Of a stretch of DNA of 64,000 bases, positions 1-12,600 are shown piece by piece; position 1 is the first letter of the stretch, and each line of letters begins with the position of its first letter. The stretch covers positions 1 to 64,000 of the forward strand of contig JANQLW010000054.1 in the NCBI GenBank assembly GCA_028280405.1, read 5' to 3'. Origin of the DNA: Bacteroidales bacterium (lineage in GTDB: Bacteria > Bacteroidota > Bacteroidia > Bacteroidales > GCA-2711565). The translations under genes and the position numbers were made by a program. Under the pieces are notes generated by a model. The model saw nothing but the letters and a program-made list of their open reading frames with translations, was not told the DNA's origin and ran no database searches.

Positions 1-251
1 ATTTTTGGTCTAAAAAAATCCTCCATATAAGCACAGTTGCGTAAATTATAAGAAGTAAAACCTTGATCAGCCCTCTGAGAAAGCTTAGGTTCAAAACTAT
101 CTAAATGCGATTTAATAGCAGGATAATCCTTTATATTTATGGGATTTATACCGTTCCCCTTAATACCATTATGAGTATTAATTAACCATAAATCAGCAAA
201 ATCTACTTTATATCTTTTTATATCCCTGCCGCGTAAAATCGGTCTTTTTTT
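1..251 (-). pseudogene. Start-less fragment of an Eco57I/PglX-like DNA methyltransferase / type IIG restriction enzyme (target-recognition region); continues beyond the left edge
   Basis: Minus-strand translation is open from just after a TAA at 252-254 to the window edge: KKRPILRGRDIKRYKVDFADLWLINTHNGIKGNGINPINIKDYPAIKSHLDSFEPKLSQRADQGFTSYNLRNCAYMEDFFRPK. The PILRGRDI(K)RY ... DYPAIKxHL ... RxDxG.T.YNLRNCAYxEDF pattern is typical of the TaqI_C/Eco57I specificity region. No ATG/GTG/TTG start is appropriately placed, so the ORF is not in the supplied track. Confidence 0.75.
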
Positions 252-258
252 TTATACT

Positions 259-885
259 ATGCTTTTACAAAAACAACAAAATATGATTTACGGATATATT
301 AGAGTAAGTACAGACAAACAAACAGTAGAAAACCAAAGGTTTGAAGTGGTAGAATTTTGCAAGCAAAAAGAAATTATTGTTGATAAATGGATAGAAGAAA
401 CTATTTCCGGCACAAAAGAGCTAAATCACAGGCGTTTGGGGAAATTGGTAAGAAAAATGAAATCAGGTGATATCCTTATTTGCACCGAACTTTCGCGCCT
501 TGGCAGAAATTTACTAATGATAATGAGTATATTAAATGATTGCATGCAAAAGGACGTGCGCATTTGGACAATCAAAGATAATTTTCGTCTGGGTGATGAT
601 ATAAGCTCAAAAGTTTTGGCTTTTGCATTTGGTTTAGCTGCAGAAATTGAACGTAACCTAATTTCGCAAAGAACAAAAGAAGCATTGGCAAGAAAAAAAG
701 CAGAAGGTGTAATTTTAGGAAGACCAAAAGGTAAAAAATCGTCAAAGAAAAAACTTACCGGAAAAGAAAAACAAATAAAAGAAATGTTGGAAGCAGGCAT
801 TTCATACAGTGCAATTGCCCGGTATTTAAAGGTACACCGTTTAACGGTATCAAATTTTGTACATGAACAAAAACTGAAAGAATAA
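259..885 (+). CDS. Serine recombinase (resolvase/invertase family) with C-terminal HTH; start probably at 283 (MIYGYIRVS)
   Basis: YIRVSTDKQTVENQ catalytic N-terminus, ELSRLGRN, AEIERNLISQRTKEALARKKAEG.LGRPKG motifs, C-terminal HTH. Confidence 0.93.
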   Translation: MLLQKQQNMIYGYIRVSTDKQTVENQRFEVVEFCKQKEIIVDKWIEETISGTKELNHRRLGKLVRKMKSGDILICTELSRLGRNLLMIMSILNDCMQKDVRIWTIKDNFRLGDDISSKVLAFAFGLAAEIERNLISQRTKEALARKKAEGVILGRPKGKKSSKKKLTGKEKQIKEMLEAGISYSAIARYLKVHRLTVSNFVHEQKLKE

Positions 886-1347
886 TGAATCTATTTGTGC
901 ATTATGACTTAACTAGACCAACATTCAAAGCGGAATGGATTGTAACAATCGGTTTGGTAAAACAACTAAAAACAGCTTTATCTTAATGAAAGCCCACCCT
1001 TCGCATCCATACACATTGGCAAGTCGCACAAGCCAAAGCGCAATCCAAAACTTGCCAAAGAGTATGCCTGCCCCATCGCACGGACTGACAGAGGAAAACA
1101 AAGCACGGGCATACAACAATGTGTATAAGTCATTGGGCAAAAAGTGGTTAATTAAAAAATTGTACTTTTAACGAACATATCTACGGTTTGACAGTGAAGT
1201 GTGTTGAAATGCCCAACGCCTCATACACAAACCGTTAAGAATCTCAAGCTAATCATCCCCAGTTTTTATTAGAATTTCTTAACTTAGCGAAAGTTTTTTT
1301 GCGAGCTATTTTACCATTGTTATACTTGCTAGAATTATTATTCAATT

Positions 1348-6579: not shown

Positions 6580-7995
6580 TCATTTAGAATCCCTAATCAC
6601 TATAACTTTCATTTTTGTATCCCCTTTTTCCAGATAAAGGCCAAACTCTTTCAAGGCTTCATTAACAGCATTTAAATCGGATAAATCGACCATCATATTC
6701 ATATCAATCTCATAATCAATGCCGGTTGCATCAACAAAAGGATCTTCAGTCTGATTTGCCCAGAATAGTTTATTACAAATCCACTCGGGAGTGATGTTTG
6801 TGTAGTTAATTCCTAAACTGTTTCCTATTTCTTCCTTACTTAAATAACATTTCCAAGGCTTTCCGGGTGTTTTGGTTTTTAGCTTTTTCCCAGCATCTTT
6901 AGTAGCTTTAAGCTTCCAGCAAGGCATATCACGTTTTTCAATGCTAACCTCATAACCGAAATAGGATTTCAAATCATTTTGCATACATTCTTGCAAAAGC
7001 TTTGCACTTGCTTTTTCTTTCGGTACAATTAGATTGTAGTTATAACGTCCATCTTTTGATTTCCAGGTTCCCATAAAATCTGTTGAGTCTTTTAATTCTA
7101 AGAATACTTGTGGCCACATTTTGCCATACGAAGTTTCTCCGATCTTTGGCCAGGTAGGGACAGTATCATTGTAAGCCAGGTAATATAAATTTATCAAGGG
7201 TCTGCCTATTGCAATTATACGGTGACTCATTTTTTCTTTTAACTCCGGATTCCCTATTCGTCTGTAAGTCCCTATGTAATCAAAATTATTAGCCTGGATA
7301 TTATGTTTGTATGTAGTGAGAATAGACCGAAATATAAAGTCATCATCATTGCCTCCATTGCCCTCGCTTAGTAAGGGTTTCAATGCATCAAAAGGTATCT
7401 TCTGAACAGTGGTTTCTTTCAATTCTTTAATAGCAGCCTTCAAATCATATGAATGATCCAGTACTTTTTTAATGACTGTCTCTAACTCCGGATCATTAGG
7501 ACTGCCCACCCATGTAATAATTCCGTTTTGATCTACAATTACTGACCATGGGATACCCATCTTCCCTAAGGCTACTAACCAATTCTTATTCAGGTTTTGA
7601 TCAGGATCATCTACCCCCACACTATAGGTAATTACCTTTGATTTCTTTTGAACATAATTTCTAACTTTCTGTACATAACTCGTATCTGTTTTTTGTAAGT
7701 TATTGTTCTCCTTTACAAAAAGACTTATCACTTCCAGTTTGCCCGCATATTTTTTTGAGAGGGCACTAAGGCGGGGTTTTGCGTGCGCACAACCTATGCA
7801 CCAAGTAGCTCCAAAATCTATCAAATAGATTTTGTTTCTATCGTAATTTGTAAGTTTATTCCCTTTTATCCAGACAAAAGCGTTGATTTTCGGTGCTTTA
7901 TCTCCTAAGGTTAGCATTTTACTTTGTCCTTGTATCAAAAGGCTGAGCTTTATAAAAAATATCAGGCTTACTATTTTAATTTTTGTATACATCAT
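6580..7995 (-). CDS. TlpA-like thioredoxin-fold protein with C-terminal DUF3738/TIGR03435-like region
   Basis: Signal peptide; LIDFGATWCIGCAHAKPRLSAL (CxxC) thioredoxin motif; C-terminal half resembles the TIGR03435/DUF3738 type. Confidence 0.75.
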   Translation of the reverse strand: MMYTKIKIVSLIFFIKLSLLIQGQSKMLTLGDKAPKINAFVWIKGNKLTNYDRNKIYLIDFGATWCIGCAHAKPRLSALSKKYAGKLEVISLFVKENNNLQKTDTSYVQKVRNYVQKKSKVITYSVGVDDPDQNLNKNWLVALGKMGIPWSVIVDQNGIITWVGSPNDPELETVIKKVLDHSYDLKAAIKELKETTVQKIPFDALKPLLSEGNGGNDDDFIFRSILTTYKHNIQANNFDYIGTYRRIGNPELKEKMSHRIIAIGRPLINLYYLAYNDTVPTWPKIGETSYGKMWPQVFLELKDSTDFMGTWKSKDGRYNYNLIVPKEKASAKLLQECMQNDLKSYFGYEVSIEKRDMPCWKLKATKDAGKKLKTKTPGKPWKCYLSKEEIGNSLGINYTNITPEWICNKLFWANQTEDPFVDATGIDYEIDMNMMVDLSDLNAVNEALKEFGLYLEKGDTKMKVIVIRDSK

Positions 7996-8088
7996 TTGTA
8001 TTTATTTTTATGAATTCTAAAAATGTAAGTCATTAAGAGTCGTTAGGTGATCTTAAGAGGCCATTTTATTTGTAAAATATCATCTTAT

Positions 8089-8195
8089 AAGCATGAGGTT
8101 TTTCAAAAGTCAAGCTTATATCCCGAAGCGTTCGATAATTGTGAAACTTTAAGGATAGTTCCCAATGATGAAAGCCTTTTGATAACCTCATGCTT
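8089..8195. repeat. Large inverted repeat between SusD and TlpA genes
   Basis: AAGCATGAGGTTTTTCAAAAG (8089-8109) and CTTTTGATAACCTCATGCTT (8176-8195). Confidence 0.7.
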
Positions 8196-8255
8196 TTTTT
8201 AATTAGATGTGTCTTATATATTTAGGAGACACTGCCATTGTCGCCGGCCAGGACT

Positions 8256-9683
8256 TTAATAACCCGGGTTCTGAGTAAGATTCGGATTTCGTTCTAGGTC
8301 CTGAGCCGGAATAGGATACAATACATCTGTTGCCTGCCAGCCTTCTTTTAAAGACTCGAGCACCACATCCACTCTTCCTGTGCGTTTAAGGTCTAACCAC
8401 CGATGCCCCCATTCAGTAAATAACTCGACTCTTCTTTCTTGTTCGATGGCTAATAATAAATCAGATTGATTAATTAAGGGGTTTGTATTGCTTATTAAGG
8501 GCAATCCTGCTCTATATCGGATTATATCAAGATCATCAATAGCTTCGTTCAACTGTCCAAGCTGGGCACGGGCCTCTGCCCGGATCAAGTATTGCTCTGC
8601 TAATCTTAACACCATGGAATATTCTGTACCCGGAGTTCCGAATTGTATTTTATATTTAAATGGATAATATATGGAGGAGTCTCCAACGGTTCCCATGGCA
8701 GTCCAGCTTGCTAATCGCTTATCTTCATCTTCAAATGATTTGATGAATTCATTTGTTAAAGAACCACTAATTGAAAAATTAATATATGTAAATCCCTCAT
8801 TGGTATTCAAATAAGTACTTACCGGAAATATTTGCCAAATTGTTTCATCGCTATTTGCCAAAAATACTTCATTTAAATTAGATTCTAATAAATAGGTTTG
8901 ATTAGCAATTACCTCAGAAGCTTTTTCTTCGGCTTTACTCCAATCTTCCCAAAATAAATATACCCTTGCTAATAAGGCCTTAGCAGCCGCTTTATTGGGT
9001 CTTACTCTTTCACTCTTAGAATATGAATAGTCCTCTGCCAAAGATGCTTCAGCGCTTTCCAGGTCACTAAGGATTTGCGTATATACTTCGTTTGTGTTAT
9101 TTCGGGGGAGCAATTTATTTTCCTGAAAATCCGGCTTAAGAATTAGGGGCACATCACCGAAAAGGTTGATCAGGTAAAAATAGCTGAATCCCCTTACAAA
9201 CCTTGCTTCAGCAAGTAGTTGTTTCTTCAATTCATCAGATACCCCCGTACTATTTTCGAGACCGTCAATTGCAGCATTTGTCAGAAAGATGACTTCATAG
9301 ATACTACTCCACAGATTAAAGAGCTCGAAGTTATTTGCCAGCAATTCATTTTCTTCAAATTGTAGGTTGTTAACATCTACTAAAGGGTTTAAATTTGCTA
9401 TATAATTGTCAGCGGATAATCCAGATAAGTAAGTAACGCTTCTCCGTCCCCCTGATGCAAAGCCGGTATTGCTCATCTCAATATATATTCCCCTAATAGC
9501 AGATTCTGCCAGTACATCATCTGTGAAAACCATTTCACTCAAAGTTTCAGAGGAAGGAGTACCTATTTCTATAAAATCCTCACATGAAGAAAAAAACAGG
9601 ATAAAGGTCAAAACATTTATTATTAAAAATAAATTCCCTGCCTTTTTACGTTTATTTATTGTTGTATTATTTCTTGTTTTCAT
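8256..9683 (-). CDS. RagB/SusD family nutrient uptake outer membrane lipoprotein
   Basis: Lipoprotein signal FFSSCEDFIE; AEARFVRGFSYFYLINLFGDVPL, PNKAAAKALLARVYL, EQYLIRAEARAQLGQ, ERRVELFTEWGHRWLDLKRTGR. Confidence 0.95.
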   Translation of the reverse strand: MKTRNNTTINKRKKAGNLFLIINVLTFILFFSSCEDFIEIGTPSSETLSEMVFTDDVLAESAIRGIYIEMSNTGFASGGRRSVTYLSGLSADNYIANLNPLVDVNNLQFEENELLANNFELFNLWSSIYEVIFLTNAAIDGLENSTGVSDELKKQLLAEARFVRGFSYFYLINLFGDVPLILKPDFQENKLLPRNNTNEVYTQILSDLESAEASLAEDYSYSKSERVRPNKAAAKALLARVYLFWEDWSKAEEKASEVIANQTYLLESNLNEVFLANSDETIWQIFPVSTYLNTNEGFTYINFSISGSLTNEFIKSFEDEDKRLASWTAMGTVGDSSIYYPFKYKIQFGTPGTEYSMVLRLAEQYLIRAEARAQLGQLNEAIDDLDIIRYRAGLPLISNTNPLINQSDLLLAIEQERRVELFTEWGHRWLDLKRTGRVDVVLESLKEGWQATDVLYPIPAQDLERNPNLTQNPGY

Positions 9684-9695
9684 TGTTACAATTTT

Positions 9696-12600
9696 TTAAA
9701 AGGTTATCTCTAATCCCATACTTATTACCCTTAAAGGTGGAAGCGATATTGAACTTTGCGTCTCAGGGTCTAATCCGGTATAATTGGTGATCGTAAATAA
9801 GTTTTGGCCTTGTATGTAAACCCTAAGATGATTTATAGATTTGATTTTCATGTTTTTACCAGATAATCGGTAGGACAACGAAAGATTGCTCAAACGTATA
9901 AAGGAAGCATCACTGATAGAGGCATCACTATTCGAGAAATAAGCATAATTAGTCCAATTCTGAAAAGATTGAGAAAATTTTTGGTTTTTACTTTTATCTC
10001 CGGGTTTTTGCCAGCGATCCATAACCAGCGTTGGTTGGTTGGTTCTCCTGCCCGGAGGGCTAGGAAAGGAAACTAAATAATTAAAGCCTGTCTGCTTTAC
10101 AAACTGAAAAAGAAAATCCAGTTCAAAACCTTTATAGCGTATACTGTTTTGAATACCACCATAATAATCTCTGGCAACCTCTTTGACTAACTGTTTATCC
10201 CCTCCATTATTTTCGAATGAAATTATTCCGTTTTCGTTTACGTCTTCCACAGTATGCACACCGGTTTCAGGATCAACCCCTGTATAAACAAGTGTATTTC
10301 GAACAAACAAAGACTTACCGACTTCATTTGTGAAAGCAAAGGGGGAATCTTCAATATTTGGATATGCAATCAGTTCGTTTCGAGGGACAGACAGATTAAA
10401 GTTTGTATTCCATTCAAAATCAGTAGTTTTTATGTTAGTGGTATGTAGTTCAATTTCCCAACCCCGGTTTTCGACTGTTGCTGGCCAATTGAATTGCACT
10501 GTTGTTTTACCTGTTATAGATGGCAATGGAAGTCCTATTAACTGATTTGAAGATCGATTTTGGTACCAGCTAATCTCCATTTGAATCCGATCCTCGAAAA
10601 AGCCAAGGTCCAAACTAACTTCCAGCTTTTTAACTGTTTCCCATGAATAATCGGGGTTAGCAAAGCGGGAGGGTACCAGCCCATTTCCTCCAAGATATTG
10701 ATAAAAGGATGAAGAGTAAGAACTTAAAAAACCATAATTTCCAATTTGATCACTTCCGGTAGTACCATAACTTGCCTTTAGCTTGCCAAAACTAATAAAG
10801 GATAAATGGTTCTTTATAAAATCTTCGTTTGAAAAAGTCCAGGCCATACCAATCGCACCGAAACTCCCGAACTGTCTGCCTGGGCCAAATCGGCTGGAAC
10901 CATCTCTTCGTGCTGTAAGGTTAAGAATATATTTATTATGATAGTTATAATTTATTCTACCGAAAATAGCATAATATCTGTATCTTGCATCGTCTACTAA
11001 AATTGTGGAAATTCTTGATGCTGCCTGAATACTTCTAAGCAATGCATCACTCGTAATCCCTGATGCACTTAATGATTGAAATTCCTGAGTATCCTCTTGA
11101 AAAGTTGCACCCACAAGGGCACTTAATTGGCCATTAAAAAGCTTTTTTCTGAATTCTATTTGCGGTTCTATAATCCAGGTACTGCTCCTAGAATCAGAGA
11201 AAATAGATCGGGTTTCTGTCGTATTATATCTTGGGTTATAGGAACTCAAAGGGGATGTCTCAAATTCATCAGATAGATAAAGGGTATATCCAAAGTTAGA
11301 TTTAATGCTTAGTTCCGGTATTATTTGATATTTTAGGGTTGTATTTGCAATAAGATTATTAATCTTGGATTCATAGATTTTTCCAAGAACCGAAGCAATA
11401 GGGTTAATAAATGTATCATCCTCCCAATTAAAATTCCCTTCATCATCATACAAAGCTGGGGCATTAGGTTGCAATGTGACAGCAGTTCTTGTTAAATCTT
11501 CTGTAGGCAAGCCATTGTTAATTAATGAATAGTTTGCACTAAATGAAATACCAAATTTTTGGTTTCTTGAAGTATGATTAATGGAAATCCTGCCCGAAAC
11601 TCTTTTAAAATCAAAACTTTCCGGATATACTGTTCCTTCACGATAAAAACCACCTCCAATGGAAAATTGAGTATTCTCATTGCCGCCATTTATTGATAAT
11701 TGAAGGTCTGTTCTTTCTGATGTTCCCCCAATAAGTTCTTTTTGCCAATCAGTATATCGATTCTCATCCCAGGTACCATTAATATCATAGTCAAAAGTAC
11801 GTGGTGTAGCATTATCATTACTGAAAGCTTCTCTTCTCATTTCCAGGTATTGCTCTGTATTAAGTAAATCCATCATGTAGGCAACTTTACCAAAGCCCTG
11901 TTTCAAATTAACATTGACTTGTGTTTTACCTATCTTGCCTCTTTTTGTAGTAATTAAAACCACTCCATTGGCACCTCTGGATCCGTATATGGCAGTAGCA
12001 TCCGCATCTTTCAAGATTTCAATACTCTCAATATCTGAAGGGTTAATTGAGTTTAAAGCACTATTATGTGCTCCTCCTAAAATGCCTAAATAGTTTCCTC
12101 TAACGGATAATGAATTAGAGGAGTAAGGGACACCATCAATAATGTAAAGTGGTGCATTTCCATCTCTTCTTAAACTATTCTGCCCTCTTATACGCAGGTT
12201 TATACCACTTCCGGGCAAACCACTGGTTTGCTGAATTTCAACTCCTGCCATTCTTCCTTGTAAGGCTTGTAAAGGATTTGTAATAGATTGTTTTTCAATT
12301 TGTTTGGCATCTATTCTGGATATATTTCCGGTTTTTTCTCTTTCTTTTACCGTATAATACCCTGCATTAATGGTCACTCCCTCCAGCTCCGTAGCAGCCT
12401 GTTCCAACGTAACATTAATCGTGGTTTTGTTGCCCACTACAATTTCCTGTTTGGCAAAACCAATATAAGAAAATACCAATACAGTTTTTGAATCAGGAAC
12501 TGTAATTGAATACTCGCCATCTATATTAGTGGTTATTCCTTTAAAAGTTCCCTTTATCATTACAGTAGCATTAGGCAAGGGTTTACCATCTGAGTCAGTT

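What the first reader, a model, noticed from the sequence alone, without database searches (positions are those of the whole stretch)
1..885. Silent methylase specificity cassette beside a serine recombinase: candidate invertible (phase-variable) restriction or BREX-like locus
Seen directly: minus-strand 251-1 is open and starts right after a stop (TAA at 252-254) and an A9 tract, with no start codon. It translates as KKRPILRGRDIKRY...YNLRNCAYMEDFFRPK. Established: this resembles the specificity region of Eco57I/PglX-type methylases, and invertases next to start-less TRD cassettes are known to shuffle RM and BREX pglX specificity. The cassette begins exactly at the conserved PILRGRDI block, where a shared inverted repeat with an expressed gene would be expected. 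The recombinase lies within 35 nt, divergently oriented. The expressed partner gene would lie left of position 1.
Basis: partly seen in the sequence, partly recalled or inferred. Interest (0 to 1): 0.8.

Follow-up and report, generated by a model that had tools for sequence, protein, structure and literature searches.

The report
Invertible specificity cassette of restriction methylase
At the edge of this contig lies half of a DNA-shuffling switch: a recombinase beside a spare, silent piece of a restriction-type methylase that can be flipped into the working gene to change which DNA sequence it recognises, and the same switch recurs in dozens of other bacteria.

Summary
The start-less minus-strand frame (251-3) is the N-terminal half of an Eco57I/type IIG-like target-recognition domain (TRD), directly beside an Mpi-family DNA invertase (259-885). 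Window base 1 is a contig end. The predicted partner is on contig C82 of the same genome: PLD-helicase, YhcG nuclease, and a 947+ aa methylase running off that contig's end. Both contigs stop at the same base of an inverted 24-bp block, GGAGGATTTTTTTAGACCAAAAAT. Repeat-caused breaks in this assembly share 99 bp (its k-mer), so a shared 24 bp points to a fork: each N-half joined to more than one C-half in the reads. That is indirect evidence of inversion in the sample. Of 80 invertase relatives, 45 have a TRD cassette beside them (43 in the window's arrangement) and 26 a facing methylase. TRD halves reassort at this block. A sibling genome carries the same invertase (99%) joined to another gene exactly at window 241. 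It is not BREX. Phase-variable RM by inversion is a known kind; the two-register single-chain version is a variant. Direct read evidence is lacking.

The parts
1..24 (-). IR2: 24-bp inverted site GGAGGATTTTTTTAGACCAAAAAT at the junction of TRD-N and TRD-C halves (protein EDFFRPK(I)); also the contig end
   Evidence: Exact copy in inverted orientation at the end of contig C82 and nowhere else in the genome, 3 mismatches allowed. Same site conserved in relatives: median 24 bp identical within a locus vs 11 bp between loci.
3..251 (-). Silent, start-less TRD-N half cassette (83 aa, 'NTHNG...YNLRNCAYM' allele) of a type IIG-like methylase
   Evidence: PADLOC REase_MTase_IIG 1.6e-28; 55% identical to the expressed methylase on C82; same allele expressed in L060, L075, L091, L143.
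232..245 (-). Site B: AGACCGATTTTACG (codes RPILR), 5' junction of the cassette, inferred recombination site
   Evidence: 14 bp exact in C82 methylase. Homology to L073 stops at 241. Cassettes start at the same motif in L075, L078, L085, L143, L146 and L115. L063 shows a recombinase-tail/RGRDI fusion here.
241..986 (+). Recombinase block, 99% identical to L073 (another Prolixibacteraceae MAG) but in a different genomic context
   Evidence: blastn 746 bp, 99.06%; confirmed against the own genome.
259..885 (+). Mpi-family serine DNA invertase, 208 aa; conserved relatives start at the in-frame ATG at 283 (MIYGYIRV)
   Evidence: Pfam Resolvase 1.3e-34; NCBIfam NF009949 337 bits vs cut-off 272; alignment A1.

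Best explanation
The window edge is the right-hand half of an invertible specificity locus of a type IIG-like restriction-modification operon. Order (C82 to C83): PLD-helicase, YhcG nuclease, methylase with TRD-N1 and IR2, then [TRD-C1, short spacer, TRD-C2 reversed; missing, about 0.75 kb by analogy], then IR2 reversed, TRD-N2 reversed (window 251-3), and the invertase (259-885). The Mpi-family invertase recombines inverted sites inside the gene. At IR2 it swaps the C-terminal TRD halves (indirect evidence in this sample). At site B, the cassette start, it can swap the N-half too (inferred from homology breakpoints). Only the copy fused to the methylase N-terminus is translated as a full enzyme; the other set is a silent store. 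Switching changes the recognition sequence. Shown by sequence: gene order, sites, modular reassortment and breakpoints. Inferred: that C82 and C83 are adjacent, that the assembly fork reflects inversion, that this invertase is the catalyst, and that specificity changes.
For: (1) Facing methylase in the same genome, both contigs ending at the same base of a 24-bp inverted block found nowhere else. (2) Assembly k-mer is 99: eleven pairs of sampled contig ends share exactly 99 bp; C82/C83 share 24 bp and then unrelated sequence. This is expected if each N-half was followed by alternative C-halves in the reads. (3) 45 of 80 invertase relatives have a TRD cassette beside the invertase, 43 in the window's arrangement and 26 with a methylase copy facing it in the same contig. 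Complete examples in cultured strains include Albibacterium (L077), Chryseobacterium (L091, L092, L100) and Pedobacter (L110). (4) In L059 and L060 the inverted arms at IR2 are 750 and 766 nt apart; IR1 arms are 314 nt at 95% and 142 nt at 100%. (5) TRD-N and TRD-C alleles reassort at IR2 and occur in both expressed and silent positions. (6) The same recombinase block is joined to a different gene exactly at window 241 in L073.
Against: No reads were available; the fork argument is indirect. The C82-C83 link and the missing middle segment are not sequenced. No fork is seen at site B, so N-half switching in this sample is unsupported or rare. Twenty-three of 80 invertase relatives have no recognisable TRD cassette although the 5' flank is available, so the recombinase is not exclusive to this job. 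Site B matches the A/IR2 motif only moderately (rank 56 of 5646 in C82).
Confidence: 0.85

Rival explanations
1. Truncated pseudogene: the fragment is a dead remnant of a second methylase gene left beside an unrelated resolvase, and the contig simply ends there.
For: No start codon; the other half is not visible. L063 shows that decayed cassettes of this kind do exist. No read evidence.
Against: Exact 24-bp inverted block at both contig ends; frame intact over 83 codons; same start-less cassette at the same codon beside the invertase in several distant genomes; modules reassort.
Confidence: 0.08
2. Strain mixture: two co-assembled strains carry different fixed arrangements, giving the fork without active switching in one clone.
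For: The genome is a fragmented assembly (91 contigs, 1.87% contamination estimate) and appears to be a metagenome bin; a mixture would also make the graph fork at IR2.
Against: The fork lies exactly at the site that recombines in relatives; upstream and downstream sequence is unforked. Even so the strains would differ by the same inversion.
Confidence: 0.2
3. The recombinase is a small mobile element (IS607-like or cassette) that landed next to a TRD by chance.
For: 746-bp block 99% identical in two contexts with sharp ends; weak IS607 similarity.
Against: Best named family is Mpi invertase, above cut-off. In L073 the flanking hydrolase halves are inverted relative to each other, as inversion would leave them, not as an insertion would (own reading of the sequence). 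TRD adjacency in 45 of 80 relatives.
Confidence: 0.07

Closest known systems
Type I RM hsdS inversion systems (pneumococcal SpnIII, PMC4948785; Bacteroides fragilis system of Ben-Assa et al. 2020, cited in PMC10939037)
   Same: Specificity changed by DNA inversion between an expressed gene and silent TRD copies; two half-TRDs that can be exchanged
   Different: There the target is a separate S subunit. Here the TRD is the C-terminal part of a single methylase chain, the operon has PLD-helicase and YhcG, and the invertase is of the serine Mpi family
Gene-altering programmed inversions in type II RM (Milman et al. 2023 NAR, PMC9881135; not held here, content from own memory)
   Same: As I recall, predicted and long-read-validated gene/pseudogene inversions in type II RM genes; this locus probably belongs to that class
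   Different: I could not check whether that paper describes this operon, the Mpi-family invertase, or the independent N-half and C-half exchange
Mpi master invertase of Bacteroides fragilis (NF009949)
   Same: Recombinase family met above the curated cut-off
   Different: Mpi flips promoters of capsule loci at a distance (own knowledge); here the sites lie inside a coding sequence next to the recombinase
BREX pglX / type IIG enzymes
   Same: Eco57I-type methylase fold; best PADLOC hits are REase_MTase_IIG
   Different: BREX PglX models far below cut-off; no other BREX gene among the ORFs read on the last 11.7 kb of C82

Membership tests
Mpi-family serine invertase | Score above curated NF009949 cut-off; resolvase catalytic domain plus C-terminal HTH | tested here: met
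   337 vs 272 bits; Resolvase and HTH_38 in Pfam
Type IIG-like methylase with TRD | Eco57I methylase domain followed by TRD | tested here: met
   Eco57I 4.9e-37; REase_MTase_IIG 2.4e-283 for the C82 partner; fragment 1.6e-28
Type IIG restriction enzyme | Nuclease activity in the same chain | not tested
   No nuclease domain found by Pfam in the N-terminus; YhcG PDDEXK nuclease is a separate gene
Invertible (phase-variable) specificity locus | Expressed and silent copies in opposite orientation with inverted repeats | tested here: met
   contiguous examples L059, L060. In the window's own genome the two copies are on separate contigs
Invertible (phase-variable) specificity locus | Both orientations present in one population | tested here: inconclusive
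   Assembly fork at IR2 (24 bp shared vs k of 99); no reads available
Invertible (phase-variable) specificity locus | Recombinase required for switching; methylation motif changes | not testable with these tools
   Needs bench work
BREX | PglX above cut-off with BrxZ/BrxC partners | tested here: not met
   83.7 vs 500 bits; neighbours are PLD-helicase and YhcG
DISARM | DrmD above cut-off with DrmABC | tested here: not met
   DrmD 139 vs 610 bits; no DrmABC genes among the ORFs read on C82

The most novel reading that the evidence does not exclude
A widespread combinatorial specificity shufflon in which an Mpi-family invertase exchanges N-terminal and C-terminal TRD halves of a single-chain methylase independently, at sites sharing a common DNA motif, giving several specificities from two cassettes; the same enzyme occasionally captures unrelated genes at those sites (hydrolase in L073, GLUG-repeat gene in L063).
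Probability: 0.5. Interest if true: 0.72.

Novelty: new variant of a known kind. Interest (0 to 1): 0.58.

Why it matters
It extends inversion-driven switching of restriction specificity from three-subunit type I systems to single-chain type IIG-like enzymes across Bacteroidota and beyond, with two exchange points per gene. It also shows that contig ends sharing an inverted suffix shorter than the assembly k-mer can point to active inversions in short-read genomes without reads.

Tried and rejected
Truncated-pseudogene reading rejected because of the shared 24-bp block and the recurrence of the arrangement. BREX and DISARM filing rejected on scores. Fixed long repeat as the cause of the contig breaks rejected because repeat breaks share 99 bp. 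A second possible inverton (C18/C77 ends, 40-bp shared suffix) was checked and looks like a diverged repeat with a 2-nt indel. Literature: Milman 2023 not held; no held paper found for an invertible type IIG/PglX TRD.

Full report
Observation. The minus-strand frame at 251-3 has no start codon, follows TAA (254-252) and an A9 tract, and encodes 83 aa beginning KKRPILRGRDIKRY. The ORF at 259-885 is a serine recombinase, assigned by NCBIfam to the 'master DNA invertase Mpi family' above its cut-off. The fragment matches type IIG TRDs (PADLOC 1.6e-28).

The partner. Searching the same genome with the fragment finds C82:21465-21713, 55% identical, inside an open frame that runs off the end of C82. 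The last 11.7 kb of C82 carries, towards its end, a 1070-aa PLD-helicase (PLDc_2, SNF2, Helicase_C), a 362-aa YhcG nuclease and a 947+ aa Eco57I methylase. The methylase matches REase_MTase_IIG (2.4e-283) up to position 1009 of a 1148-position profile, so about 140 aa are missing beyond the contig end. C82's last 24 bases equal the reverse complement of window 1-24. The block occurs nowhere else in the genome, 3 mismatches allowed. At the cassette start the two copies share AGACCGATTTTACG (14 bp).

Assembly evidence for inversion. I sampled both ends of 40 of the 91 contigs. Eleven pairs of ends share exactly 99 bp as a common suffix, as expected from a de Bruijn assembly with k = 99. C82-end and C83-start share 24 bp and are unrelated further in. 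A fixed repeat continuing beyond the ends would have left about 99 shared bases. Two unique contigs ending at the same last base of a 24-bp inverted block is what a graph shows when each is followed by more than one sequence in the reads. In a fixed arrangement each N-half would have a single continuation. No comparable break occurs at site B. This is inference from assembly structure; no reads were examined. A strain mixture would give the same picture, but the strains would then differ by this inversion.

Complete relatives. In G064 (L059) and G065 (L060) the locus is contiguous: a methylase facing a silent cassette next to a 66%-identical recombinase. Inverted arms are 314 nt (95%) and 142 nt (100%) ahead of the TRD, plus a second block at IR2 (29 nt, 100%; 30 nt, 93%) with 750 and 766 nt between the IR2 arms. 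A missing segment of that size in our genome would be shorter than any of the 40 contigs sampled (smallest 3.8 kb), so a minimum-length filter could have removed it.

Census. A scan of GTDB species genomes with the recombinase alignment returned 80 loci. In 43 a TRD lies on the opposite strand just 5' of the recombinase, as in the window; in 2 it lies 3' and co-directional; in 26 a methylase TRD faces the cassette on the same contig. Of the 35 others, 12 have a contig end within 400 bp 5' of the recombinase and cannot be judged. Hosts include cultured Albibacterium, Chryseobacterium, Pedobacter and Capnocytophaga strains, and bins assigned to Clostridia, Dojkabacteria and Melainabacteria. Cassettes begin either at a motif coding SVFVRQ (site A) or, as in the window, at RPILRGRDI (site B: L075, L078, L085, L115, L143, L146).

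Modules. TRD-N halves fall into recurring alleles (NTHNG...YNLRNCAYM; ATFPS...DSISYW; IPWHFP...RWGANYW), each found both in expressed and in silent position (the automatic clustering merged the first and third). TRD-C halves cluster separately, and the same C allele is joined to different N alleles: 'WGNLNL' to N0 in L100 and L102 and to N1 in L080, L081, L088, L116; 'IFQEMVQ/YSEIVQ' to N0 in L113 and N1 in L075, L143. Within a locus the two IR2 copies share a median of 24 identical bp, against 11 between loci.

Breakpoints. Window 241-986 is 99% identical to L073, from another Prolixibacteraceae bin, but homology stops exactly at 241, the cassette junction. There the neighbour is the C-terminal half of an alpha/beta hydrolase, whose N-terminal half lies about 2 kb away in the opposite orientation. 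In L063 the recombinase's 3' end is joined to ILRGRDI, with the TRD-N half ending near the IR2 position and running into a GLUG-like gene (my reading of the translation). These are independent traces of recombination at the same places.

Verdict. The locus works like the inversion-switched hsdS loci of type I systems (PMC4948785), but on a single-chain methylase. It is not BREX or DISARM. Switching of type II RM by programmed inversion has, as I remember it, been reported by Milman et al. 2023, which is not held here, so I claim a variant rather than a new kind. Unproven: contig adjacency, live inversion, catalysis by this invertase, and the effect on specificity.

Noticed in passing
L073 7400-10175: An alpha/beta hydrolase gene is split into two inverted halves around a recombinase 99% identical to the window's; inverting about 7988-10142 would rejoin them. 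A group II intron-type reverse transcriptase ORF abuts the N-half.
   Followed up: partly
L063 6640-7373: Recombinase tail joined to a TRD-N half that runs into a GLUG-like repeat gene: a decayed or mis-recombined cassette.
   Followed up: partly
L074-L152, 5' of recombinase: Many loci carry a short palindrome such as TGTCTAAAATAAAACAGAC and a TTTAAATTAAACC motif between recombinase and cassette; possibly the recombinase's own binding or control site.
   Followed up: no
window 987-1171: Non-coding stretch with diverged copies elsewhere in the genome (C68:99655-99746, 79%; C35:13454-13518, 77%); a dispersed repeat of unknown kind next to the recombinase block.
   Followed up: no
L059, L060, L062, L063, L113, L150: In these the cassette is co-directional with and directly 3' of the recombinase; in L059, L060 and L062 the ORFs abut with an in-frame ATG, so the silent TRD could be translated alone, unlike in the window.
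   Followed up: partly
G000 C18 start and C77 end: Contig ends share a 40-bp suffix and about 96 bp allowing a 2-nt indel; looks like a diverged repeat, not an inversion.
   Followed up: yes
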